Assembly: GCF_022698145.1 (NCBI RefSeq)
Contig: NZ_JALDAX010000023.1
Location: 1-64,000 of the forward strand
Direction: 5' to 3'
Source of the DNA: Streptomyces spinosisporus
GTDB lineage: Bacteria > Actinomycetota > Actinomycetes > Streptomycetales > Streptomycetaceae
DNA length: 64,000 nucleotides
The notes beneath the pieces are model-generated. The model saw only the letters and a program-made list of their open reading frames with translations, did not search any database and had not been told where the DNA came from. Positions within the stretch are counted from its first letter, which is position 1; every line of letters starts with the position of its first letter. The position numbers were made by a program, and so were the translations under genes. Below are positions 22,407 to 39,055 of this stretch, in pieces.

Positions 22407-22483
<77 letters not shown>

Positions 22484-24165: not shown

Positions 24166-24720
24166 ATGCATCTCACTCCGGTGGAAGCCACCCTCATCGG
24201 CGCCACCGTGGGTGCCCTGGCCTCGTTCGGCGGTACCTGGTTCATCCAGCGGGCCACGCTGGCGCGCGAGCGCGAGAACCGGATCTGGGAGCGGCGGGCC
24301 ACGGTCTACGAAGAGGCGCTCACCTCCGTCAACCGGGGTGAACGCTTCCGCGCGGGGGTGCTGGCGACGGGCGATCTGCCCCGGGTGCCCGAACAGCGCG
24401 GGCGCGAGGTGGAGGCCGACCTGGTGCTGGCGCGGCTGAGGATCTACGGCTCGCCCCGGGTGGTGGACGCGCATGTGCGCACCGTCGCGGCGATGACGCG
24501 ATGGATCACGCACTTCGCCGCCTGGAAGGAGCAGGCCGCCCACGGCACCACACCCGTCCGGGCCCAGACCGACCCTCTCTGGGCGGCCGTCCTGCAGGAG
24601 GCGGAGCGCGCAAGCGGCGTGGAGCAGCAGTTCGTGAGCATCGTGCAGGCCGAGATCCAGGCCGAGGAGGCCGTACGCCCGCTCCGGTCGCGCGTGCCGT
24701 GGCGGCGGCGCCGTTCGTGA
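24166..24720 (+). CDS. Membrane-anchored protein of unknown function
   Basis: The 184-residue protein has one N-terminal hydrophobic helix (ATLIGATVGALASFGGTWFI, about 8-27), then RATLARERENRIWERRATVY and a long soluble helical region, ending in a basic tail. This looks like a single-pass anchor with a cytoplasmic coiled-coil-like domain. I do not recognise a family beyond similar small actinobacterial membrane proteins. It precedes the trypsin-fold gene on the same strand with about 135 bases between them, so it might belong to the same locus, but this is not certain. Confidence 0.65.
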   Translation: MHLTPVEATLIGATVGALASFGGTWFIQRATLARERENRIWERRATVYEEALTSVNRGERFRAGVLATGDLPRVPEQRGREVEADLVLARLRIYGSPRVVDAHVRTVAAMTRWITHFAAWKEQAAHGTTPVRAQTDPLWAAVLQEAERASGVEQQFVSIVQAEIQAEEAVRPLRSRVPWRRRRS

Positions 24721-24757: not shown

Positions 24758-24855
24758 TGGCCGCCCACGATCTCGATTCGTACCAACTGCCGCGCTATCC
24801 TTGACGATTCAGGATCGTGGCCACGGCGATCCTGCTGGCGATCGGGGGATCACTG

Positions 24856-25743
24856 GTGACGTCGGCCGAATACACGGTGGAGCTGTCCCGCAACGACAGG
24901 ATCCTCGGTGGCGGATTCCGTATGACGCGGCATTTCGTCCTCACCGCCGACCATCACCTCGGGACCGAGATCCGTGAGCACGGCTCGGTGGATCTGCAGC
25001 TGCCGCAGGGGCTCAGGGTCGCCGGCACCGTCGAACAGCGGTGCCCGGACGCGGACTTGGCCCTGATCAGGCTCTACAGCGACGACCTGCCCGCGCCGGA
25101 GATCTATTTCGACCAGGCCAGAAGAGGCGAGCCCTGGCGCACCTCCCGCCCCACCTCCTACGGCGGCATGCTGCACGGCACCGTGCTCAGGGCCTCGTTC
25201 CACCACGCGGACCCCGGCCGTTCGGCCGTAGAGATCCTGGTGCTCGACTGCGCCGGTGCCGACGACGAGGAGCAGCAGGCCAACCGCGCCGCCTACACCG
25301 GACGCGCGGGCATGCCGATCGAACGCGCGGGAGCGGCCCGCTTCCCCGTCGTCCTCGGCGTCGCGATCCGGCTGCACGGCACCGGCAACAGCGACTCCAA
25401 CGGCACCGCGCACACCGCGAACGGCCGGCCGGAGCTGGTCGCCGCGACGGTCAAGGAGGCGCTGCGGCGCTTACGTTGTCTGCGTCTGACCGAGGTGGTC
25501 GAGTCCCTGTGGCCCACGATCTCGGGCACGGACGCGGCATCGCAGCCCGGAGCGACGGTGGAACCCGCCCCGCCCATGGAGCTGTTCAGGATCGACGAGG
25601 TGCCGCAGGAGAACGTGGTGCCGTACCGTGTGAAGTACGCCAGCGAAGTCCAGACCCGCCTGAGCGAGTTCGGCTGGATCACCCCCGTCACCATCACCAG
25701 CGCTCTGACGCGTGCGAACGACGAGACGGAGGGCCAGTCGTGA
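24856..25743 (+). CDS. Trypsin-fold protein with Ser-to-Ala in the catalytic motif
   Basis: The 295-residue protein follows the chymotrypsin layout: GGGFRMTRHFVLTADHHL (His equivalent at 33), DADLALIRL (Asp at 67), and GRAGMPI where active enzymes have GDSGGP, so the Ser position is Ala (151). It is probably a non-proteolytic binding module or pseudo-enzyme. GTG at 24856 is chosen for GGGGGA upstream; GTG at 24817 is possible. A TTA codon at 25471-25473 suggests bldA-dependent translation. Its stop overlaps the GTG of the next gene (GTGA), so the two are coupled. Trypsin-like domains beside repeat proteins occur in bacterial conflict systems; that role is inference. Confidence 0.7.
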   Translation: MTSAEYTVELSRNDRILGGGFRMTRHFVLTADHHLGTEIREHGSVDLQLPQGLRVAGTVEQRCPDADLALIRLYSDDLPAPEIYFDQARRGEPWRTSRPTSYGGMLHGTVLRASFHHADPGRSAVEILVLDCAGADDEEQQANRAAYTGRAGMPIERAGAARFPVVLGVAIRLHGTGNSDSNGTAHTANGRPELVAATVKEALRRLRCLRLTEVVESLWPTISGTDAASQPGATVEPAPPMELFRIDEVPQENVVPYRVKYASEVQTRLSEFGWITPVTITSALTRANDETEGQS

Positions 25744-27446
25744 GTACGGATCTCGATGCGGCCGTCGATCTGGCCGAGGATCTGCTGCTGGGCGGCACAC
25801 ACCCGGCCGAGGAGTCGCACCGGTCGGCGTTCGAACGGTACGCGGCGGCCCTGGAGGCGACGTCCCTGGAGTCGGCCGCCCTCCCACCGGAGTCGGCGCA
25901 GCGGCTCGTCCACCTGTCCAAGCTGCTCCTGGCGTTACGGCTCGAAGAGCTGTCCCTGCGTCTGGTACGCCTGGCCGTACGGCAGTTGGAGCTCACCGAG
26001 GCAGGCCCCTACGCCTTTGGGGCCGAGGTCTGGAGCGACGCGGCAGCACTCCTCGCCGAGCACGAGCAGCTGGACCAGGCGCGTGCGGCTTTGATCACCG
26101 GCCTCGGTAAGGCGCGCAGGGGAGCGGAGGGCGGGGGAGCGAAGGGTCTGCTGCCCCGGATCCTCGCCAATCTCGCCGCCGTGAACCTCCGTTCGGGGAA
26201 CACGGAGGACGCCGACCGGTGGGCGCGGCTGGCCGAGCGGGCGCTCGACGAGCCCGGCCGTCCGCACACGGGTGAGAAGGAGGAGGCCACCGTCCGGCTG
26301 CTGGTGCACTGGGTGCGGGCGGCCACCAGGACGACCCCGGCCGGTGCCGAGGACGAGACGGCCATGACCTCCTTCGCCCGGGCCGCACGGCACTTCTCCG
26401 AGATCGCGGGCGACGGCCATCGGCTGTCCCTGAGCTCCGCCTTCGACCTGGCGCTGAGGGCGATCAGGGACGCCGACGCGACCGGCCGGCCCGAGCAGGC
26501 GGCCCGTGGCCGGGAGGCCCTGGAGATCGTCGGCCTCCATGTGTCCGCCACCTACGGCACCGAGGACCCCCGTGCGCTCGCGGCCCGCGCCGTCCTCGCG
26601 AACGCCGAACTCGAAGCGACCGACGCCGAGTCCGACCCCGGCCGCAGCACCGCCCTCGCCGCCCTGGAGCACATCGCCGGCGCCACCTCCGCCGTCCTCG
26701 GCGTCGACCACCCGCAGAGCCTCGCGACGCTCGACAGCCGCGCCCGTATACCGGCGGACCTGCCGTCCTCGCTGGAACTGCCGTACCACATCGACCACTT
26801 GTATCTCCCGCAGGACGGCGAGGAGCGCAACGCCGCGAAGAAGGAGGCCCTGCGCAAGGAGGGCTCACTGGTCAGGCTCATCGCCCACGGCGGGGCGTCG
26901 TATCTGCTGGAGGGCGCCCACCGCTTCCGGCCGGTCATGCTCGAAGCACTGGAACGGCACGTCCACTTCGAGATCATCATCAGCAACCCGTGGAACAGCC
27001 TCGGCGTGTTCATCAACAGGGATCTGCACCCCGACGTGGAGGTCACCGCCGACAACATCATCGACCACATCAGGAACAGCCCGTACTACCGCGAGACGTT
27101 CGTCGCGGTGACCGAGGCCTACGAGGAGCTGCGGGCGACGTACGGCGAGGCGATCGAGCTGCGCCTGACGCCCATGGACATCCCGGCGACCACCCTGCTG
27201 ACCTCCGAGGGCGGCTTCTACGAGCCCTATGTCACGACCGACCCGGAGTACCGCACCAACCACGGCATGAAGACGTTCGAAGTCCGCTTCAACCGTGCCA
27301 CCCGTCTCTACGAGGACAGCCTGGCCGGCTTCGCCACCCAGTGGGAACTCGCCGGCAGCCTTGCGCACTTCCGCCAGTTCGAGGAGCAGTACCAGTCGCG
27401 GCTGCGCTTACTGATGACGACCCTCACGCACCCCAAGTCGCCGTAG
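25740..27446 (+). CDS. Helical-repeat protein with C-terminal effector-like domain
   Basis: The 568-residue protein has an N-terminal 330 residues of alternating helices with TPR-like spacing ([40 protein letters not shown]). A compact alpha/beta domain follows from about 375 ([49 protein letters not shown]). The latter recalls PLD-like or DUF5919-like domains found in conflict proteins, but catalytic HxK motifs are not clear. TTA codons occur at 25935-25937 and 27408-27410. The GTG start overlaps the trypsin-fold stop. The 3' end overlaps the convergent Nudix gene by 23 bases. I do not know its activity. Confidence 0.7.
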
Positions 27447-27864
27447 ACACCGCCCGGTTCAGATGCAGCGACCCCGCCCGCACACTGTCCAGCACCGTGA
27501 CCGAACCGACGAACAGGGCCTCGGGCAGCGCATCGAGCGGGAAGAACCGCCAGCCCGCGCAGCGGTCGGGCTCGCGGACCGTGATCCGTCCCTCGTAGCC
27601 GAGGACCTCGACCCCGATCTGCATATGGTGGTTGGCCTCGGGCTGCGGATCGGTGACGCAGGCGACCCTCAACCCGAGCGGCCGGATGCCGACTTCCTCC
27701 ATGAGTTCCCGCGTGGCCGCCTCGAAGATCGTCTCCCCGATCTCCAGATGCCCGCCGGGAAGTCCCCAGGTGCCCTCGCCGAAGGTGTTCTTGCGCAGCC
27801 CCAGCAGGACACCGTCGTCCGACCGCACGACGGCCTGTACCCCGACACGCACCACCGAGCTCAT
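27424..27864 (-). CDS. Nudix hydrolase, NUDT15/MTH2-like
   Basis: The 146-residue protein has a perfect Nudix box [20 protein letters not shown] followed by [15 protein letters not shown] just before it and [11 protein letters not shown] after it resemble the NUDT15/MTH2 group, which hydrolyses nucleoside triphosphates. It is cytosolic and Mg2+-dependent. Its ATG overlaps the stop of the radical SAM gene (ATGA, 27861-27864), so the two proteins are made together. That pairing suggests it acts on a nucleotide made or altered by the radical SAM enzyme. Its 3' end runs 23 bases into the convergent repeat-protein gene. Confidence 0.85.
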
Positions 27865-28763
27865 GACGCTCCCTCTGCCGTGGGATCCGGATATGTGCCG
27901 GAGAAATTACCGGCGTTCCTCGTGTGATCGATCGCGCCGCGCAGACCCGCCGCCACCATGTCCGGCTCCTGGAAAAGGTGACCGATGCGCCGTTCCTGTC
28001 CGTCGTCGATGACGACGGCCTGGCCGTCGGGGTCGATGAACAGATAACTGCCGCTCCGCTTGGAATTCCGGTACACCTCGAGCCGGATCCCGCGATTGGC
28101 GGCGGCCTTCTCGCACCGGGCGACCACGTCCTCGAACTGCTGGTCGCCGACGGAGAGCCAGTCCCGGTTGTCGGCGCCGTAGTTGGTCTCGGACATCTGA
28201 TAGACCTTCCACACATGCGGAAGCCAGGCGTCCTCGATCAGGTCCAGGACGTCGGGCGCTCCGGACAGGTTCAGCCGGGTGACGACCGTGCCGAGTTTCA
28301 CCTGTACGCGGTCGTGCCGTGTGCGTACTTCCTCAAGGAGCCGCAGGACGCGTGCGCGGTGCGGTGCGACTCCGGTGCGCATGAGCCGGTGCTGTTCAGC
28401 GTCGGCGGACTCCAGGGGCAGGGCGATCCAGGAGAGCTGCGGCAGGATCCGCTCCATCGTGCGCAGCGGGGCCAGCCCGTTGGTGGACAGCACCACGCGC
28501 GGACCCGGCAGACCCGACGGCAGCGGCCGGCTCAACTCCGCCAGCAGGTCGGCCAGATAGGGCAGCAGCGTCGGTTCCCCACCCGAGACGACCACGCCCC
28601 TGACTTCTGCCCGGCGCAGCAGCCCCACAACCCGGAACGCCTCCTCTTCCGTCATGGACGGAACCTCGTGCCGCGGCCCGAAACAGAACGGGCAGCTCAG
28701 ATTGCATTTGCCGAGCAGCCGAAGATCGACATAGGCCGGCAGCCGCAGCGTGGGGTCGGGCAT
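27861..28763 (-). CDS. Radical SAM enzyme, viperin-like
   Basis: The 300-residue enzyme binds a 4Fe-4S cluster through C20, C24 and C27 ([11 protein letters not shown]) and SAM via VVSGGEP (58-64). Later segments match the pattern of viperin: [11 protein letters not shown] (155-165), HVWKVYQM (183-190), and [15 protein letters not shown] (233-247), which parallels the conserved Asn...SYLxxDxxxR region of that family. Prokaryotic viperins make 3'-deoxy-3',4'-didehydro nucleotides that stop phage RNA synthesis. A general MoaA-like enzyme is the alternative. It is coupled to a Nudix hydrolase. ATG at 28763 follows GGAGAG. Confidence 0.75.
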
Positions 28764-28963: not shown

Positions 28964-30805
28964 ATGGGATCACCTGAATCGCGTGAATCTCCGCCGCGCA
29001 GGGGCGCCGTGCTCCTCGCGCTTCGTTACTACGGACGGGAGTTGGTCCGGCTTCGGTTGCCGGCGGTGCCCGGGATGTTGTTGCCGGCGCTGGGCAACAT
29101 CGGACTGGCGTACATCGCGCCGCTGATCGTCGCGAAACTCGTCGGCCGCATCGCCGGGGGCGCCGGCGGCGGCATCCGTACCAACCTCTCCTACGTCCTC
29201 GCCTTCGCCGGCGTCCTGCTCCTGTCGGAGGGGCTGTGGCGCGTCGGCCTGCACTGTCTGAACCGTCTCGACGCCCTCGGCATCGAGCATCTGTATGTGA
29301 TCGGCATGGACGAACTGTTCGCCAAGGACGCGACGTTCTTCCACGACAACTTCGCGGGAGCGCTGACCAAGCGGGTGCTGAGCTTCGCCTCCCGCTTCGA
29401 GGAGTTCGCCGACACCCTGACGTTCAACATCCTGGGCAGCCTGGTGCCGCTGGTGTTCGGTTCGGTGGTGCTGTGGCGCTACGAACCGCTGCTCGTCGTC
29501 GGCCTGTTGGCGATGATCCTGCTGACGGCACTGTGCGCCGCGCCGCTGATCCGGCGCCGACAGGCGCTGGTCAACCGGCGTGAGGAGGCCCTCGCCCAGG
29601 TGTCGGGCCATGTCGCCGACAGCCTGATGAACATGGACACGGTCCGGGCGTTCGCGGCCGAGCGCCGCGAGGCCGCCGAGCACCGGCGCCGCGTCGCCCA
29701 CTCGCGGCGGCTGATGCTGAAGTCGTGGGACTACGGCAACCTGCGCATCGACACCTTCATCGCGCCGATGTCCGTACTGACCAACGTCCTGGGCCTGCTG
29801 CTCGCGGTCGCGCTCGGCGGCGGCGAGCACGGGGTCGAGGCCGTGATCGTCGCCTTCACCTACTACACCAACGCCACGAAGATCATGTTCGAGTTCAACC
29901 AGATCTACCGCCGTCTGGAGAGCTCGATGACGGAGGCCGCACAGTTCACCGAACTGCTGCTCGTCAAGCCCACCGTGCTCGACCCGGTCTCGCCCGAGCC
30001 GCTGCTGCCCGGACCCGCCGACGTCCGCTTCGAGAAGGTGAACTTCGCCCACGGCGGCGGCGATCCGCTCTTCGAAGGGCTCGACCTGGCCGTGGCCGCC
30101 GGGACGAAGATCGGACTCGTCGGCCGGTCCGGCGGCGGCAAGACCACCCTGACCCGGCTGCTGCTGCGGATGACGGACATCGACGGCGGCCGGATCCTGA
30201 TCGGCGGCCAGGACATCAGCCGGCTGCGCCAGAGCGACCTGCGCGGGCTGATCGCCTATGTCCCGCAGGACCCGGCGATGTTCCACCGCACCCTGCGGGA
30301 GAACATCGCCTTCGCCCGGCCGGACGCCACCGACGCCGAGATCCGCCGCGCGGCCGAGGCGGCGCACGTCACGGAGTTCGCCGACGCGCTGCCGAACGGC
30401 TTCGACACCATGGTCGGCGAGCGCGGCATCAAGCTGTCCGGCGGCCAGCGCCAGCGGGTCGCGCTGGCCAGGGCGATCCTGCGGGACGCGCCGGTCCTGC
30501 TGCTCGACGAGGCGACCAGCGCACTGGACTCCGAGAGCGAGCTCCTCGTCCAGGCCGCGCTGTGGCGGCTCATGGAGGGACGTACGGCGCTGGTGGTGGC
30601 GCACCGGCTGAGCACCGTCGCCACCATGGACCGCCTCGTCGTCCTCGACCGCGGCCGGATCGTCGAGCAGGGCACCCACCAGCAACTTCTCGCATCCGAC
30701 GGCGCCTACGCCAAGCTGTGGCGGCACCAGTCGGGCGGCTTCCTGGCCGAAGGCCCCGACGCGGACGTCGAGGACAACGCCCCGGACGCCGAAGTCCTGG
30801 GGTAG
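28964..30805 (+). CDS. ABC exporter with fused membrane and ATPase domains
   Basis: The 613-residue half-transporter has about six membrane helices in residues 1-330 and an ATPase domain with Walker A GRSGGGKTT (about 385), Q-loop YVPQDP, signature LSGGQRQR, Walker B VLLLDEATSALD and switch His in VVAHRLST. It should act as a homodimer exporting lipid, peptide or drug. ATG at 28964 follows GGATCGGG. It is divergent from the viperin-like gene across 200 bases, so a shared regulatory region is possible. No peptide precursor is seen nearby. Confidence 0.9.
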   Translation: MGSPESRESPPRRGAVLLALRYYGRELVRLRLPAVPGMLLPALGNIGLAYIAPLIVAKLVGRIAGGAGGGIRTNLSYVLAFAGVLLLSEGLWRVGLHCLNRLDALGIEHLYVIGMDELFAKDATFFHDNFAGALTKRVLSFASRFEEFADTLTFNILGSLVPLVFGSVVLWRYEPLLVVGLLAMILLTALCAAPLIRRRQALVNRREEALAQVSGHVADSLMNMDTVRAFAAERREAAEHRRRVAHSRRLMLKSWDYGNLRIDTFIAPMSVLTNVLGLLLAVALGGGEHGVEAVIVAFTYYTNATKIMFEFNQIYRRLESSMTEAAQFTELLLVKPTVLDPVSPEPLLPGPADVRFEKVNFAHGGGDPLFEGLDLAVAAGTKIGLVGRSGGGKTTLTRLLLRMTDIDGGRILIGGQDISRLRQSDLRGLIAYVPQDPAMFHRTLRENIAFARPDATDAEIRRAAEAAHVTEFADALPNGFDTMVGERGIKLSGGQRQRVALARAILRDAPVLLLDEATSALDSESELLVQAALWRLMEGRTALVVAHRLSTVATMDRLVVLDRGRIVEQGTHQQLLASDGAYAKLWRHQSGGFLAEGPDADVEDNAPDAEVLG

Positions 30806-32489: not shown

Positions 32490-33272
32490 TCACCGGCTCA
32501 CCAGCAGCTGGAAGTCGAAGGCGTAGCGCGAGGCCCGGTAGATGTGCGAGCCGTACTCCACCGGGCGTCCCGTGTCGTCGTACGCGGTGCGCTGCATGGT
32601 CAGCAGCGCGGCGCCCTCCTCCTCGTCGAGGCGCTGCGCCTCCTCGGCGGTGGCGGAGCGGGCGCCGACGGTCTGGCGGGCGCTGTGCAGGGTGATGCCG
32701 GCCGCGCGCATCATCCGGTAGAGGCCCGTCGCCTCCAGCCGTGCGGTGTCGAGGTCGAGCAGGGTCGCGGGCAGATAGTTGACCAGGAGGGCGACCGGCT
32801 GGCCGTGGGTCAGGCGCAGCCGTTCCAGGACGACCACCTCGCTGCCCTCGGCGATGCCGAGTGCGGCCGCCACGTCGGGCACGGCCGGCCGGCGCTCGTT
32901 GCGCACCACCTGGGTGGTGGGACCCTGGCCGGCCGCCTCCAGGTCGTCGTAGAGGCTGGAGAGCTCCAGCGGGCGTTTGACCTGGCTGTGCACCACCTGC
33001 GTGCCGACACCGCGGCGGCGCACCAGCAGCCCCTTGTCGACCAGGGACTGGATGGCCTGCCGCACCGTCGGTCTGGACAGGCCGAGGCGGGTGGAGAGAT
33101 CGATCTCGTTGCCCAGGAGGTTGCCCGGGGCGAGGACGCCGTGCTCGATGGCCGCCTCCAGCTGCTGGGCGAGCTGGTAGTACAGCGGCACCGGGCTGGC
33201 CCGGTCCAGGGCGAAGTCCATCGAGTCGACAGCGGCCGTCGCGGTACGTGCGCCGACGCCGGTCCGAGCCAT
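32490..33272 (-). CDS. GntR/HutC-family regulator of the inositol operon
   Basis: The 260-residue regulator has a GntR winged helix (VPLYYQLAQQLEAAIEHG, LGLSRPTVRQAIQSLVDKGL) and a C-terminal UTRA effector domain (ALLVNYLPATLLDLDTARL, ARSATAEEAQRLDEEEG). Such proteins repress catabolic operons until a sugar or its phosphate binds. It is the last gene of the iolB-iolD-mmsA-gntR unit, with GGAGGGAGG before its ATG. A perfect TGTA-N2-TACA palindrome at 37839-37848 in the divergent promoter region is a plausible operator. Confidence 0.9.
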   Translation of the reverse strand: MARTGVGARTATAAVDSMDFALDRASPVPLYYQLAQQLEAAIEHGVLAPGNLLGNEIDLSTRLGLSRPTVRQAIQSLVDKGLLVRRRGVGTQVVHSQVKRPLELSSLYDDLEAAGQGPTTQVVRNERRPAVPDVAAALGIAEGSEVVVLERLRLTHGQPVALLVNYLPATLLDLDTARLEATGLYRMMRAAGITLHSARQTVGARSATAEEAQRLDEEEGAALLTMQRTAYDDTGRPVEYGSHIYRASRYAFDFQLLVSR

Positions 33273-33305
33273 GGGCGTACCTCCCTCCGAAGAACTGATC
33301 GCGTG

Positions 33306-34799
<1,494 letters not shown>

Positions 34800-34828
34800 G
34801 GTGCAAGGGCCTTTCGCATACGGGGAGT

Positions 34829-36706
34829 TCAGAGGTGGCGGCGCCGGTCGGCGGAGAGCCGGTCGTACTCCTCGCGGGCCTGTACGGCGGCCTCGCGGGA
34901 GGCGGTCTCGGCGACCGGCACGTCCCACCAGGCCTCCGCCGGGGGAGCGGCCGGGCCGGCGGTGCCGGTCTCGACGTAGACACAGGTGGGGCGGTCGGAG
35001 GCGCGGGCCGTGGCGAGCGCCTCACGCAGTTCGCGGACCGTCTTGGCGCGCAGCACGTCCATGCCGAGGCTGCCGGCGTTGGCCGCGAGGTCGACGGGCA
35101 GCGGGGCGCCGGTGAAGGTGCCGTCGGCCGCGCGGTAGCGGTAGGCGGTGCCGAAGCGCTCGGCGCCGACGGACTCGGACAGGCCGCCGATGGAGGCGTA
35201 GCCGTGGTTCTGCAGCAGGACCAGGTTGACGGGCAGGCCCTCCTGGACGGCCGTGACGATCTCGGTCGGCATCATCAGATAGGTGCCGTCGCCGACCAGT
35301 GCCCACACCGGGGTGTCGGGCGTGGCCTGCTGCACGCCGATGGCGGCCGGGATCTCGTAGCCCATGCAGGAGTAGCCGTACTCCAGGTGGTACTGGCGCG
35401 GGCCGCGTGCCCGCCAGAGCTTGTGCAGGTCGCCCGGGAGCGAACCGGCCGCGTTGATCACCACGTCGTCGTCGCCGACGACCGCGTCCAGCGCGCCCAG
35501 CACCTGCGTCTGGGTCGGCACGGCGCTCTCGTCGTCCGCGGCGTAGGCCGCCTCCACGACCCGCTCCCAACGCTCCTTGCCGACGCGGTACTCGGCCTCG
35601 TACCGGCTGTCGACGTGATGATCCGCGAGCCCTCCGAGGAGCGCCTGCAGACCGGTGCGCGCGTCGCAGACGAGGGTGCGCGCCGCGAGCTTGTGGGCGT
35701 CGAACGCGGCGATGTTGAGGTTGACGAACCGCACGTCCGGGTTCCGGAAGAGGGTGCCCGAGGCGGTGGTGAAGTCGGTGTAGCGGGTGCCGACGCCGAT
35801 CACCAGGTCGGCGGTGCGCGCGAGGTCGTCGCTGACCGCCGTGCCGGTGTGGCCGATGCCGCCGAGGTCGGCGGGGTGGTCGTGGCGCAGTGAGCCCTTG
35901 CCCGCCTGGGTGGAGGCGACCGGGATGCCGGTGGCGTCCACCAGCGCCTTCAGCGCCTCCTCGGCCCGGCTGTGGTGGACTCCGCCGCCCGCCACGATCA
36001 GCGGGCGCTCGGCGGCCCGGACCGCCCGCACCGCCTCGGCCAGCTCGAGCGGGTCCGGCGCGGGACGCCGTACGTGCCACACGCGCTCGGCGAAGAACTC
36101 CTCGGGCCAGTCGTACGCCTCTGCCTGCACGTCCTGGGGGAGGGCCAGGGTGACCGCGCCTGTCTCGGCCGGGTCGGCGAGGACCCGCATGGCGTTCAGG
36201 GCCGACGGGATCAGCGACTCGGGGCGGGTGACGCGGTCGAAGTGGCGGGAGACCGGCCGCAGGGTGTCGTTGACCGACACGTCCGCCTGCGTCGGGTGCT
36301 CCAGCTGCTGCAGCAGCGGGTCGGCCGGCCGGGTGGCGAAGTAGTCGCCGGGCAGCAGCAGGACCGGGATGCGGTTGATCGTCGCCAGGGCGGCGCCGGT
36401 GACCAGGTTGGTGGCGCCCGGACCGATGGACGTGGTGACCGCCTGCGCGGAGAGGCGGTCGAGCTGGCGGGCGTGGCCGACGGCCGCGTGCACCATGGCC
36501 TGTTCGTTGCGGCCCTGGTGGAACGGCATCGTGTCCTCGCCGGCCTCCAGCAGGGCCTGGCCGATCCCGGCGACGTTGCCGTGGCCGAAGATGCCCCAGG
36601 TGCCCGCGATCAGCCGGTGGCGCACTCCGTCGCGCTCGGTGTACTGGACCGACAGGAACCGCACCAGGGCCTGGGCGACGGTCAGGCGGCGGGTGGGGGT
36701 GCTCAT
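34829..36706 (-). CDS. iolD: 3D-(3,5/4)-trihydroxycyclohexane-1,2-dione hydrolase
   Basis: The 625-residue thiamine-diphosphate enzyme begins RLTVAQALVRFLSVQYTERD and shows IFGHGNVAGIGQALLEAG, TTSIGPGATNLVTGAALATI, and the ThDP-binding GDGTYLMMPTEIVTAVQEG with following N. This is IolD, which opens the cyclohexane ring in the myo-inositol pathway. Its ATG at 36706 overlaps the iolB stop by four bases (ATGA), so the two are coupled. Confidence 0.95.
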   Translation of the reverse strand: MSTPTRRLTVAQALVRFLSVQYTERDGVRHRLIAGTWGIFGHGNVAGIGQALLEAGEDTMPFHQGRNEQAMVHAAVGHARQLDRLSAQAVTTSIGPGATNLVTGAALATINRIPVLLLPGDYFATRPADPLLQQLEHPTQADVSVNDTLRPVSRHFDRVTRPESLIPSALNAMRVLADPAETGAVTLALPQDVQAEAYDWPEEFFAERVWHVRRPAPDPLELAEAVRAVRAAERPLIVAGGGVHHSRAEEALKALVDATGIPVASTQAGKGSLRHDHPADLGGIGHTGTAVSDDLARTADLVIGVGTRYTDFTTASGTLFRNPDVRFVNLNIAAFDAHKLAARTLVCDARTGLQALLGGLADHHVDSRYEAEYRVGKERWERVVEAAYAADDESAVPTQTQVLGALDAVVGDDDVVINAAGSLPGDLHKLWRARGPRQYHLEYGYSCMGYEIPAAIGVQQATPDTPVWALVGDGTYLMMPTEIVTAVQEGLPVNLVLLQNHGYASIGGLSESVGAERFGTAYRYRAADGTFTGAPLPVDLAANAGSLGMDVLRAKTVRELREALATARASDRPTCVYVETGTAGPAAPPAEAWWDVPVAETASREAAVQAREEYDRLSADRRRHL

Positions 36707-37596
36707 AGGGACGTCTCCGGTGCCGTGTAGAGGGGGAGTCGGGGGTCGACCGGCTGCTCGGGCCAGGTGTCGCGGACCCAGGCGTGGTCCGGGTGGTCGC
36801 AGATCAGCCAGGCGCGCTCGGGCTCGGGGCCCGCCATGACGTTGAGGTAGTACATGTGGTGGCCGGGCACCGCCATGGACGGCCCGTGCCAGCCGTCGGG
36901 GATCAGGACGACGTCGCCGTCGCGCACCTCGGCCAGGACGTCGGTGCCCCGGCCGTTGCCGGAGGGGGAGACGCGCTGGTAGCCGAGGCCGGGGATGCCG
37001 TCGTGGTCGGCGAACTCGAAGTAGTAGATCTCCTCCAGCACCGATTCCTCGCCGGGCCGGTGCTCGTCGTGCTTGTGCGGCGGGAAGGACGACCAGTTGC
37101 CGCCCGGGGTGATCACCTCGACCGCGATGAGCTTGTCGCACTCGAAGACGCCCGCCGCACCGAAGTTGTTGACCTGCCGCGAGGAGTTCCCGGTGCCGCG
37201 CAGCTCCACCGGCACCGACGAGGCCGGGCCGTAGCGCGCGGGCAGCCTGCGGGTGCAGCGCGCCCCGGTGAGCGCGAACCGTCCGCCGCCGGTGGAGGTG
37301 ACGGTCGTACGGGAGTCCCTCGGCACATAGGCGAAGTCGCTCACCCCGCTGAACACGCCGGCGCGGCCGGTGAGGTAGAAGGTGTCATGGCCGAAGTCGT
37401 CGGCCGTCGACACCGTGCAGCCGCCGCTCAGCGGCAGCACGATCCACTCGCTGTCGCCGGTGTCGAAGCTGTGCGTGCCGCCCGGCGGCAGCTCCAGGAC
37501 GCGCAGGCCGGAGTAGCCCCAGCCGGCCTTCTGGGGCGAGACGTCGACGACGTAGGGGCCGCCGAGGGCCTTGCCTGCGGGAAGGTGGTACGTCAT
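36703..37596 (-). CDS. iolB: 5-deoxy-glucuronate isomerase
   Basis: The 297-residue bicupin shows the IolB phrases GWGYSGLRVLELPPGG, EWIVLPLSGGCTV, WSSFPPHKHDEHRPGEES and VLEEIYYFEF, with the His/Glu metal site in the second cupin. It isomerises 5-deoxy-glucuronate to 2-deoxy-5-keto-gluconate, after IolD. ATG at 37596 has GGAGGAAC directly upstream. Kinase IolC, which would act next, is not in the window. Confidence 0.95.
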   Translation of the reverse strand: MTYHLPAGKALGGPYVVDVSPQKAGWGYSGLRVLELPPGGTHSFDTGDSEWIVLPLSGGCTVSTADDFGHDTFYLTGRAGVFSGVSDFAYVPRDSRTTVTSTGGGRFALTGARCTRRLPARYGPASSVPVELRGTGNSSRQVNNFGAAGVFECDKLIAVEVITPGGNWSSFPPHKHDEHRPGEESVLEEIYYFEFADHDGIPGLGYQRVSPSGNGRGTDVLAEVRDGDVVLIPDGWHGPSMAVPGHHMYYLNVMAGPEPERAWLICDHPDHAWVRDTWPEQPVDPRLPLYTAPETSL

Positions 37597-37623
37597 TGCG
37601 TTCCTCCGTGTCACAACACCGGG

Positions 37624-37827
37624 TCACAACAGGCCGCCTACGGCGTATCGCATGTTTTCGGCCACTTCCTGGCCGGAGAGCGGCCCGTGGGCGGGGGTCC
37701 GGGTCGCTCCAATGGCGAAGAAGTCCAGCTCCTCGGTGGGTACCGCCAGGTCAGGCGCCTTAGGCTGCGAGTAGAAGTACGAAGGGAAGTCGTTCGCATC
37801 CCAGGTGTAGGCCTCGAAGGGTGGCAC
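37624..37827 (-). CDS. Small coding-like frame upstream of iolB
   Basis: A 67-residue frame (for example PPFEAYTWDANDFPSYFYSQ, then GPLSGQEVAENMRYAVGGLL) has strongly GC-biased third codon positions, as real Streptomyces genes do. It ends 28 bases before iolB on the same strand. GTG at 37827 or TTG at 37833 could start it, but no clear ribosome binding site is seen and the upstream part of the frame is not coding-like. I do not recognise it. It may be a short leader protein or the 3' remnant of a lost gene. Confidence 0.4.
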   Translation of the reverse strand: MPPFEAYTWDANDFPSYFYSQPKAPDLAVPTEELDFFAIGATRTPAHGPLSGQEVAENMRYAVGGLL

Positions 37828-37838
37828 TGTCAATAGTT

Positions 37839-37848
37839 TGTACTTACA
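37839..37848. promoter_or_regulatory. TGTA-N2-TACA palindrome, candidate GntR operator
   Basis: TGTACTTACA is a perfect inverted repeat of TGTA around CT. It lies between the iolB-side genes and the divergent ABC transporter, in the most AT-rich part of the region. CTGTCAATA (37827-37835) and its inverted copy TATTGACAG (37884-37892) flank it. The GntR/UTRA protein of the operon is the likely ligand; this is inference. Confidence 0.45.
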
Positions 37849-37885
37849 TTCGGACCTGACGGTGAAATGATGTCTTAACAAAGTA

Positions 37886-37914
37886 TTGACAGCGGGCGCG
37901 GCCAGGGGTTTGAT
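37886..37914 (+). promoter_or_regulatory. Housekeeping-type promoter of the sugar ABC operon
   Basis: TTGACA at 37886-37891 and TTTGAT at 37909-37914 are separated by 17 bases, a good match to the principal sigma-factor consensus. The leader to the binding-protein start would be about 115 bases. The -35 hexamer lies inside the inverted copy TATTGACAG, so a bound repressor would block it. Confidence 0.6.
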
Positions 37915-38035
37915 CCCGTCCCAGGCCGACAGCCGCGTTTGCGGCGCACGACCCGGGCATGCCAAGATCCCGGGTTCGGATCTTCGTGATCCCCTTCTCC
38001 TTTCCCCCGCAACGCACAGTGAGGTGCCAGGAAAG

Positions 38036-39055
38036 ATGGACCGCGTTTCTCATTCCCGCTCCCGCAGACTCGTCCCCGTCGTCGCGGTGGCCGCGGCTGC
38101 CGCCCTGACCCTCGCCGGCTGCTCCAGCAGCTCGGGGGGCAAGAAGTCCGAGGAGGGCGGCAACAACGCCTCCGCGGGCAAGGCCACCACGCCCCGGATG
38201 ACCGTCGCGCTGGTCACGCACCAGTCGCCCGGCGACACCTTCTGGGACATCGTCCGCAAGGGTGCCGAGGCCGCCGCGGCCAAGGACAACATCAAGCTGA
38301 TCTACTCGGCCGACCCGAACGCCGGAAACCAGTCCAACCTGGTGCAGAACGCGGTCGACCAGAAGGTCGACGGCATCGCGGTCACCCTCGCCAAGCCCGA
38401 CGCCCTCAAGGGCGCCATCGACAAGGCGAAGTCGGCGAACATACCCGTCGTGGGCCTCAACTCCGGCGTGAGCGACTGGAAGAAGCTCGGCCTGATGGAG
38501 TTCTTCGGCCAGGACGAGTCCGTCGCCGGCGAGGCGTTCGGCAAGAAGCTCAACGAGGTCGGCGCCAAGCACGTCGTCTGTGTCGTGCAGGAGCAGGGCA
38601 ACGTCGGTCTGACGCAGCGCTGCGACGGCCTGGAGAAGACCTTCTCCGGCAAGAGCGAGGTGCTCAACGTCAACGGCACCGACATGCCCTCCGTGAAGTC
38701 GACGATCACCGCCAAGCTCAAGCAGGACTCCTCCATCGACTACGTCGCCACGCTCGGCGCGCCCTTCGCGCTGACCGCCGTGCAGTCGGTGGCCGACGCG
38801 AACAGCAAGGCGAAGGTCGCCACCTTCGACCTCAACAAGGACCTCACCAGCGCCATCAGCAAGGGCACCATCCAGTTCGCCGTGGACCAGCAGCCGTATC
38901 TGCAGGGCTACCTGGCGATCGACTCGCTGTGGCTCTACAAGAACAACGGCAACTACATGGGCGGCGGTGAGCAGCCCGTCCTGACCGGACCGGCCTTCGT
39001 CGACAAGAGCAATGTCGAGGCCGTCGCCAAGTTCGCCGCGAAGGGCACCCGGTGA
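38036..39055 (+). CDS. Sugar/inositol ABC transporter substrate-binding lipoprotein
   Basis: The 339-residue product has a lipoprotein signal with lipobox LAGC (C29) and a periplasmic-binding type-1 (ribose/inositol-like) fold: VALVTHQSPGDTFWDIVRKG, NLVQNAVDQKVDGIAVTLAK, IPVVGLNSGVSDW. It captures a sugar or cyclitol outside the membrane. ATG at 38036 follows AGGAAAG. It leads a three-gene transporter operon divergent from the iol genes, so inositol or a related cyclitol is the likely ligand. Confidence 0.92.
   Translation: MDRVSHSRSRRLVPVVAVAAAAALTLAGCSSSSGGKKSEEGGNNASAGKATTPRMTVALVTHQSPGDTFWDIVRKGAEAAAAKDNIKLIYSADPNAGNQSNLVQNAVDQKVDGIAVTLAKPDALKGAIDKAKSANIPVVGLNSGVSDWKKLGLMEFFGQDESVAGEAFGKKLNEVGAKHVVCVVQEQGNVGLTQRCDGLEKTFSGKSEVLNVNGTDMPSVKSTITAKLKQDSSIDYVATLGAPFALTAVQSVADANSKAKVATFDLNKDLTSAISKGTIQFAVDQQPYLQGYLAIDSLWLYKNNGNYMGGGEQPVLTGPAFVDKSNVEAVAKFAAKGTR

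What the first reader, a model, noticed from the sequence alone, without database searches (positions are those of the whole stretch)
27424..28763. Viperin-like radical SAM enzyme coupled to a nucleotide-type Nudix hydrolase
Seen: a 300-residue protein with CxxxCxxC and SGGEP, plus [17 protein letters not shown] and [15 protein letters not shown] segments in viperin order, overlapping a perfect Nudix box protein by ATGA. Known: viperins make antiviral ddh-nucleotides, often beside nucleotide kinases. Inferred: the Nudix enzyme makes, clears or edits the nucleotide, giving a small two-gene antiphage or self-protection module. A Nudix partner would be unusual.
Basis: partly seen in the sequence, partly recalled or inferred. 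Interest (0 to 1): 0.75.

Follow-up and report, generated by a model that had tools for sequence, protein, structure and literature searches.

The report
Viperin-like enzyme in Streptomyces gene cassette
A soil bacterium carries a distant relative of the antiviral enzyme viperin, encoded together with a nucleotide-cleaving enzyme and facing a conserved set of sensor-like proteins; this recurring five-gene cassette looks like an undescribed defence module, but its activity is untested.

Summary
A 300-residue radical SAM protein (27861-28763, minus) overlaps a canonical Nudix gene (27424-27864, minus) by ATGA. The rSAM's nearest family is viperin/SAND: profile match E 2e-29 over 225 columns including the C-terminus, against 1e-15 to 1e-17 for MoaA, NirJ and a third group. 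It is not a viperin proper: 89 bits against a curated cut-off of 180, outside the monophyletic viperins (98/96), and six positions fixed in viperins are replaced in all 11 relatives, while the cluster cysteines and the equivalents of mouse K220, K247 and Y302 are kept.

The unit is larger than two genes. The pair converges on a membrane-type protein, a trypsin-fold protein (triad serine usually lost) and a TPR protein ending in a PLD fold without HxK motif. Among 13 such cassettes in Streptomycetaceae, rSAM is present in 11, Nudix in 11, both in 9. The neighbouring ABC transporter is not conserved. Ten genuine prokaryotic viperin neighbourhoods show no annotated Nudix; four show nucleotide kinases.

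Most likely a defence-type cassette making a modified nucleotide whose level Nudix controls. The function is inferred, not shown.

The parts
24166..24720 (+). Small protein, 184 aa: one N-terminal hydrophobic (probable transmembrane) segment followed by a charged helical region (RERENRxWxRR). No Pfam family.
   Evidence: Homologue in the same position in 11 of 13 cassettes, 26-39% identity in alignment A3; no Pfam match. Membrane placement is read from the sequence, not computed.
24817..25743 (+). Trypsin-fold protein, 308 aa as listed; the GTG at 24856 fits the homologues' starts better. His and Asp of the triad kept, serine position is Ala: probable pseudo-protease.
   Evidence: Pfam Trypsin_2 9e-4, sub-threshold; homologue in 13 of 13 cassettes; serine position Ala or Tyr in 8 of 9 aligned, Ser only in L014.
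25740..27446 (+). TPR protein, 568 aa; N-terminal TPR solenoid, C-terminal ~210 aa PLD-fold domain without HxK motif (pseudo-PLD). Start overlaps the stop of the trypsin-fold gene (GTGA).
   Evidence: TPR hits in 5 of 7 homologues, TPR fold hits; C-terminal domain modelled at pLDDT 86.7, Foldseek hits TrmBL2, Nuc, NucT, Zucchini (E 7e-8 to 9e-5); no HxKxxxxD motif in 11 sequences.
26787..27446 (+). Pseudo-PLD domain of the TPR protein; also found fused to an APH/TCAD9-like kinase-fold domain in a second gene cluster with another radical SAM gene and an HD-domain gene
   Evidence: second cluster L053, L054, L124.
27424..27864 (-). Nudix hydrolase, 146 aa, canonical box; 3' end overlaps the convergent TPR gene by 23 bases
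   Evidence: Pfam NUDIX 5.3e-19; closest solved relatives plant Nudix hydrolase 1, MutT-like proteins and NUDT15 (E 2.6e-22 to 2e-14); present in 11 of 13 cassettes; Nudix/TPR 3' overlap of 23-77 bases in 8 of those 11.
27861..28763 (-). Viperin-sister radical SAM protein, 300 aa (C20, C24, C27; GGEP 61-64; K156, K186, Y240)
   Evidence: present in 11 of 13 cassettes.
27861..27864 (-). ATGA stop/start overlap of rSAM and Nudix genes (translational coupling likely)
   Evidence: Read from sequence; 4-base overlap also in L010, L011, L012, L013, short gap in L009.

Best explanation
The finding is the enzymatic half of a conserved five-gene Streptomycetaceae cassette: membrane-type protein - trypsin-fold protein - TPR/pseudo-PLD protein, facing Nudix - viperin-sister radical SAM. 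Most likely it is a defence or biological-conflict module. Proposed mechanism: the radical SAM enzyme binds SAM on a [4Fe-4S] cluster, makes the 5'-deoxyadenosyl radical and uses viperin-type chemistry (conserved Tyr as electron/proton donor) to dehydrate or otherwise modify a nucleotide or nucleotide-linked metabolite, probably not exactly the viperin NTP, because positions fixed in viperins are changed. The translationally coupled, NUDT1/NUDT15-type Nudix enzyme cleaves the diphosphate of that product or precursor and so limits self-poisoning or trims it to the active form. The three catalytically degenerate or non-enzymatic partner proteins act as a membrane-linked sensor/scaffold that reads the infection state or the modified nucleotide. 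Shown here: gene content, conservation, family kinship, residue changes, folds. Inferred: chemistry, substrate, Nudix role, sensing, anti-phage purpose.
For: Nearest family is viperin (hhalign E 2e-29 over 225 columns incl. C-terminus, vs 8e-16 MoaA, 2e-15 NirJ, 7e-17 for a third rSAM group; PDB profile search). Cluster motif, K220/K247 equivalents and the C-terminal Tyr are kept in 11/11. 13 cassettes found by TPR or pseudo-PLD searches that did not ask for rSAM: rSAM in 11, Nudix in 11, both in 9, trypsin-fold 13, membrane-type protein 11. Flanking genes differ between cassettes (about eight contexts by reading the gene lists), so the cassette travels as a unit; it is rare (7 of 296 Streptomyces have the rSAM). 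Nudix is closest to nucleotide-type NUDT1/NUDT15. The pseudo-PLD domain has a second, independent pairing with a radical SAM gene and an HD-domain gene in 3 of 3 genomes. Degenerate trypsin domains are typical in published conflict systems of multicellular bacteria (PMC7159879). Two other cassettes lie near defence-type genes: Vsr plus C5-methyltransferase in L051 and a possible toxin-antitoxin pair in L120.
Against: No activity or phage data. The window cassette is not in an evident defence island; tested neighbours are MFS, TP-methylase, DUF309, YceI, sigma factor, GntR and Aldedh genes. Six positions invariant in viperins are changed, so substrate and chemistry may differ. Two cassettes lack rSAM and two lack Nudix, so neither enzyme is strictly required. 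The position of the clade next to viperins is not firmly resolved once long outgroups are dropped (AU p 0.41 for ours+viperins, 0.16 for ours+MoaA-like). No MoxR/vWA or other published core component was recognised.
Confidence: 0.5

Rival explanations
1. A true prokaryotic viperin (SAND) making a ddh-NTP chain terminator, with Nudix as a housekeeping or self-protection NTP pyrophosphatase replacing the usual nucleotide kinase.
For: PADLOC pVip E 1.5e-26; nine viperins are the top PDB hits; cluster, K220, K247, Y302 equivalents retained.
Against: 89 bits vs curated cut-off 180; outside the viperin clade (98/96); N77, H79, K/R120, N222, R/K245 and E293, all fixed in 14 viperins, replaced in all 11 relatives, and the conserved Gly-Arg at 193-194 is displaced.
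Confidence: 0.2
2. A signalling system: rSAM and Nudix make and destroy a small-molecule signal that the TPR/pseudo-PLD protein binds, and the trypsin-fold and membrane proteins are the output, so that the modified nucleotide is a messenger and not a polymerase poison.
For: PLD-fold domain without catalytic motif whose fold matches include the TrmB family, in which this fold senses ligands (from memory); convergent, often overlapping gene ends; second cluster with rSAM plus HD-domain protein.
Against: No ligand known; a degenerate trypsin-fold protein makes a poor protease effector; L051 and L052 keep the proposed sensor without the rSAM.
Confidence: 0.2
3. A metabolic or natural-product gene pair: a radical SAM tailoring enzyme of a nucleoside or other metabolite, unrelated to defence.
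For: Streptomyces have radical SAM tailoring enzymes such as BlsE, which acts on a nucleoside derivative (PMC3715490); Nudix relatives include a geranyl diphosphate hydrolase.
Against: No biosynthetic, transport or resistance genes were seen to travel with the cassette; the adjacent ABC transporter is not conserved; conserved partners are TPR, trypsin-fold and membrane-type proteins; flanks vary.
Confidence: 0.13
4. The radical SAM enzyme modifies a peptide or protein (for example the trypsin-fold or TPR partner) and Nudix is incidental, as proposed for the radical SAM in the FtsH ternary systems of Kaur et al. 2020.
For: Published conflict systems carry a radical SAM thought to act on a peptide (PMC7159879).
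Against: Closest family by sequence acts on nucleotides; Nudix is overlapped with rSAM in most cassettes; no short peptide gene was noticed between the genes, though none was searched for systematically.
Confidence: 0.1

Closest known systems
Viperin / SAND (RSAD2; prokaryotic viperins, pVip)
   Same: Radical SAM core; C-terminal region with WK(V/I)(F/Y)Q and N-x(4-5)-SY-x-x-(I/V)D order; CxxxCxxC; GGEP; K220, K247, N229, Y302 equivalents
   Different: Separate clade on a long stem; N77->D, H79->R, K/R120->G, N222->G, R/K245->V/I/T, E293->Y; clade-specific C-terminus with NF-x2-TYP; Nudix partner instead of nucleotide kinase; TPR/trypsin-fold partners
MoaA / NirJ-type radical SAM enzymes
   Same: Radical SAM core domain
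   Different: Match ends near residue 176-184, without the viperin-type C-terminal part; E values more than 10 orders weaker
MoxR-vWA ternary and related conflict systems of multicellular bacteria (Kaur et al. 2020, PMC7159879)
   Same: Found in Streptomyces; degenerate trypsin domains; TPRs; one published subtype has a radical SAM gene; a TCAD9-like domain occurs in the second cluster found here
   Different: No MoxR, vWA, VMAP, FtsH, iSTAND or GTPase component recognised; viperin is not mentioned in that paper
NUDT1/NUDT15/MutT-type Nudix hydrolases
   Same: Canonical Nudix box, whole-domain match E 2.6e-22
   Different: Coupled by overlap to a viperin-sister gene; substrate unknown
TrmB / DUF5919 / inactive PLD-fold regulatory domains
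   Same: PLD fold without HxK motif
   Different: No sequence-level link to DUF5919 could be shown (hhalign probability below 1%); fused to TPRs

Membership tests
Viperin / SAND (pVip) | CxxxCxxC [4Fe-4S] motif and GGEP | tested here: met
   C20, C24, C27 and GGEP in 11/11 relatives
Viperin / SAND (pVip) | Score above curated NCBIfam cut-off for prokaryotic viperin (180 bits) | tested here: not met
   89.3 bits for the window protein; 76-78 bits for three relatives
Viperin / SAND (pVip) | Position inside the viperin clade with MoaA-like outgroups | tested here: not met
   14 viperins form a clade without it (98/96); sister to it in one tree (94/90), unresolved in the other
Viperin / SAND (pVip) | Residues fixed in viperins (N77, H79, K/R120, N222, R/K245, E293; K220, K247, Y302) | tested here: inconclusive
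   Six replaced in all 11, three retained; that they line the NTP site is from memory of the mouse structures
Viperin / SAND (pVip) | Viperin-type C-terminal region beyond the radical SAM core | tested here: met
   Profile alignment to residue 252, PDB viperin alignments to about residue 245
Viperin / SAND (pVip) | Converts NTP to 3'-deoxy-3',4'-didehydro-NTP | not testable with these tools
   Needs enzymology or LC-MS
Nudix hydrolase superfamily | Nudix box GX5EX7REUXEEXGU | tested here: met
   [23 protein letters not shown] at 38-60; PF00293 5.3e-19
MoxR-vWA / VMAP ternary conflict systems | MoxR AAA+ and vWA proteins encoded with effector | tested here: not met
   None among Pfam hits of cassette proteins or of the flanking window proteins tested; genes further away were not scanned
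Active phospholipase D / PLD nuclease | HxKxxxxD motif | tested here: not met
   Absent in 11 sequences although the fold matches PLD
Trypsin-like serine protease, active | His-Asp-Ser triad | tested here: not met
   His and Asp kept, serine position Ala in the window; Ser only in L014 of 9 aligned
Anti-phage defence system | Protection from phage | not testable with these tools

The most novel reading that the evidence does not exclude
A previously undescribed defence system of filamentous actinobacteria in which a viperin-sister radical SAM enzyme with a remodelled pocket makes a new modified nucleotide (not a known ddh-NTP), Nudix controls it, and a TPR/pseudo-PLD protein with a pseudo-trypsin and a membrane protein senses infection or the nucleotide itself. 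A second cluster (kinase-fold/pseudo-PLD, radical SAM, HD) would be a parallel member of the same design.
Probability: 0.35. Interest if true: 0.82.

Novelty: new variant of a known kind. Interest (0 to 1): 0.62.

Why it matters
Viperins are among the few immune enzymes shared by animals, archaea and bacteria. A sister clade that keeps the radical machinery but has exchanged six otherwise fixed positions tells where viperin specificity can change, and could give a new class of antiviral or regulatory nucleotide. The conserved Nudix partner makes the question of how cells keep such nucleotides from harming themselves directly testable. The pseudo-PLD domain, beside a radical SAM gene in 14 of the 16 loci seen here, offers a handle for finding related systems.

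Tried and rejected
ABC transporter 28964-30805 as a partner: rejected, not conserved in homologous loci. DUF5919 kinship of the pseudo-PLD domain: suggested by eye, not supported by hhalign; the fold-level PLD match stands. Homology of the small membrane proteins of the two clusters: not shown (hhalign probability 13%). Pattern scan of GTDB contigs: only one weak hit. Phage records, IMG/VR and plasmids: no close relative of the rSAM (plasmids gave four viperin-type proteins at 26-28% identity), none in viral contigs for rSAM or pseudo-PLD. Wider Actinomycetota: 347 genomes gave only the window genome itself. tRNA-Pro at 22407 as an integration site: no repeat of 14 bases or more of its sequence elsewhere in the window; cassette GC 0.698 is close to its flanks (0.706-0.707), so composition gives no sign of recent import. 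Literature: no held paper joins viperin with Nudix hydrolase.

Full report
What is there. Both reported genes exist as described: a 300-residue radical SAM protein at 27861-28763 and a 146-residue Nudix hydrolase at 27424-27864, both on the minus strand, overlapping by ATGA. A GGAGAG motif lies a few bases before the rSAM ATG and GAGGGAG before the Nudix ATG (read).

Is it viperin? Family searches agree on viperin as the nearest family: PADLOC pVip 1.5e-26, NCBIfam prokaryotic viperin 2.3e-25 but only 89 of the required 180 bits, and nine viperins as the best PDB matches. A control warned against reading too much into this: the same NCBIfam model reaches up to 77 bits with other radical SAM proteins, matches in 108 of 247 Actinomycetota genomes and rings in control genomes such as E. 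coli. I therefore compared family profiles. The clade profile matches viperins with E 2e-29 over 225 columns, through the C-terminal part to residue 252; MoaA, NirJ and a third rSAM group give 8e-16, 2e-15 and 7e-17, the first two ending near residue 180. Viperins and MoaA match each other with E 1.8e-28, so the distance between this clade and viperins is one between families.

Phylogeny. In a 57-protein tree the clade is sister to all viperins (94/90). With six long outgroups removed, viperins are a clade of their own (98/96) and the clade's exact place is open: grouping with viperins is not rejected (AU p 0.41), nor with MoaA-like proteins (0.16); grouping with NirJ is rejected (0.002). Either way it lies outside viperins proper on a long stem.

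Residues. On an alignment of 11 relatives and 14 viperins (mouse numbering), C84, N85, C88, C91, GGE (125-127), K220 (13 of 14 viperins), N229, K247 and Y302 are shared by both groups. Fixed in viperins but replaced in all 11 relatives: N77 to Asp, H79 to Arg, K/R120 to Gly, N222 to Gly, R/K245 to Val, Ile or Thr, E293 to Tyr; the conserved Gly-Arg at 193-194 is displaced by one column. That several of these bind the NTP, and that Y302 is the catalytic tyrosine, I recall from the mouse structures of Fenwick and co-workers; PMC9642334 mentions a conserved tyrosine as possible electron and proton donor without naming it in the passage read. The replacements are themselves nearly constant, which points to a changed substrate, not decay.

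The larger unit. tblastn of the window's proteins against six homologous loci showed that the rSAM always faces a TPR protein (25740-27446, plus strand), usually with Nudix in between. Upstream of the TPR gene are a trypsin-fold gene and a small membrane-type gene. The ABC transporter next door is not part of it. Searches made with the TPR protein or its C-terminal domain, without asking for rSAM, brought the number of cassettes to 13: trypsin-fold protein in 13, membrane-type protein in 11, Nudix in 11, rSAM in 11, both enzymes in 9. L014 and L123 lack membrane-type protein and Nudix; L051 and L052 lack rSAM. Two cassettes (L120, L121) are in another genus of the same family. By reading the gene lists, the cassettes sit in about eight different contexts. 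Tail-to-tail overlaps of 23 to 77 bases between TPR and Nudix occur in 8 of the 11 with Nudix, and of 65 bases between TPR and rSAM in L014 and L123.

The partner proteins. The C-terminal domain of the TPR protein gave a confident model (pLDDT 86.7) that matches PLD-fold proteins: TrmBL2 (7e-8), Nuc, NucT, Zucchini. It lacks the HxKxxxxD motif. The trypsin-fold protein keeps His and Asp but the serine position is Ala or Tyr in 8 of 9 aligned homologues. Kaur et al. 2020 report that nearly all effector-position trypsin domains of their conflict systems are inactive (PMC7159879). The Nudix protein is closest to NUDT1, MutT-type and NUDT15 enzymes.

A second cluster. The pseudo-PLD domain also occurs fused to an APH/TCAD9-like domain in three genomes (L053, L054, L124), each time next to a different radical SAM protein (51-55% identical among them) and an HD-domain protein (52%). 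Over both kinds of cluster the pseudo-PLD domain lies beside a radical SAM gene in 14 of 16 loci.

Contrast with genuine viperins. Ten plasmid-borne viperins, taken with their neighbours, showed nucleotide kinases beside four (tmk or deoxynucleoside kinase) and no annotated Nudix. That gene table is incomplete, and ten is a small sample.

Reading. The best explanation is a defence- or conflict-type cassette whose radical SAM enzyme makes a modified nucleotide or nucleotide-linked compound under control of Nudix, with three degenerate or non-enzymatic proteins as sensor and scaffold. Gene content, conservation, kinship and fold are shown; chemistry, substrate, sensing and anti-phage role are inferred. 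No held paper joins viperin and Nudix hydrolase, and the Kaur paper does not mention viperin; the library lacks many subscription papers, so an earlier description cannot be excluded.

Noticed in passing
L053 4833-9525, L054 3890-8607, L124 5818-10566: Second conserved cluster: small membrane-type protein, APH/TCAD9-like kinase-fold protein fused to the same pseudo-PLD domain, a different radical SAM protein (CPADCGYCYLG motif, perhaps spore photoproduct lyase-like) and an HD-domain protein. I know of no description of it.
   Followed up: partly
L051 14238-15685: Vsr endonuclease and C5-cytosine methyltransferase about 4 kb from a cassette that lacks the rSAM
   Followed up: partly
L120 4374-5106: Possible toxin-antitoxin pair (RelE-type toxin and XRE antitoxin by eye) about 2 kb from the cassette
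   Followed up: partly
L052 6140-8610: TPR gene appears as fragments followed by a full-length copy, as if partly duplicated
   Followed up: no
window 27424-27446: Convergent TPR and Nudix genes overlap at their 3' ends; such overlaps recur in most cassettes and may mean antisense coupling
   Followed up: partly
window 32490-39055: GntR/UTRA regulator, aldehyde dehydrogenase and neighbours that look like an inositol catabolism operon; only the regulator and dehydrogenase were tested by Pfam
   Followed up: partly
window 27861-28763 and 247 Actinomycetota genomes: NCBIfam NF038283 (prokaryotic viperin) gives E below 1e-15 with other radical SAM proteins, control genomes such as E. coli included; sub-cut-off hits should not be called viperin
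   Followed up: yes
window 27424-27864: The Nudix protein weakly matches PADLOC candidate family PDC-S07 (3.9e-9, residues 1-61), probably through the general Nudix fold
   Followed up: no
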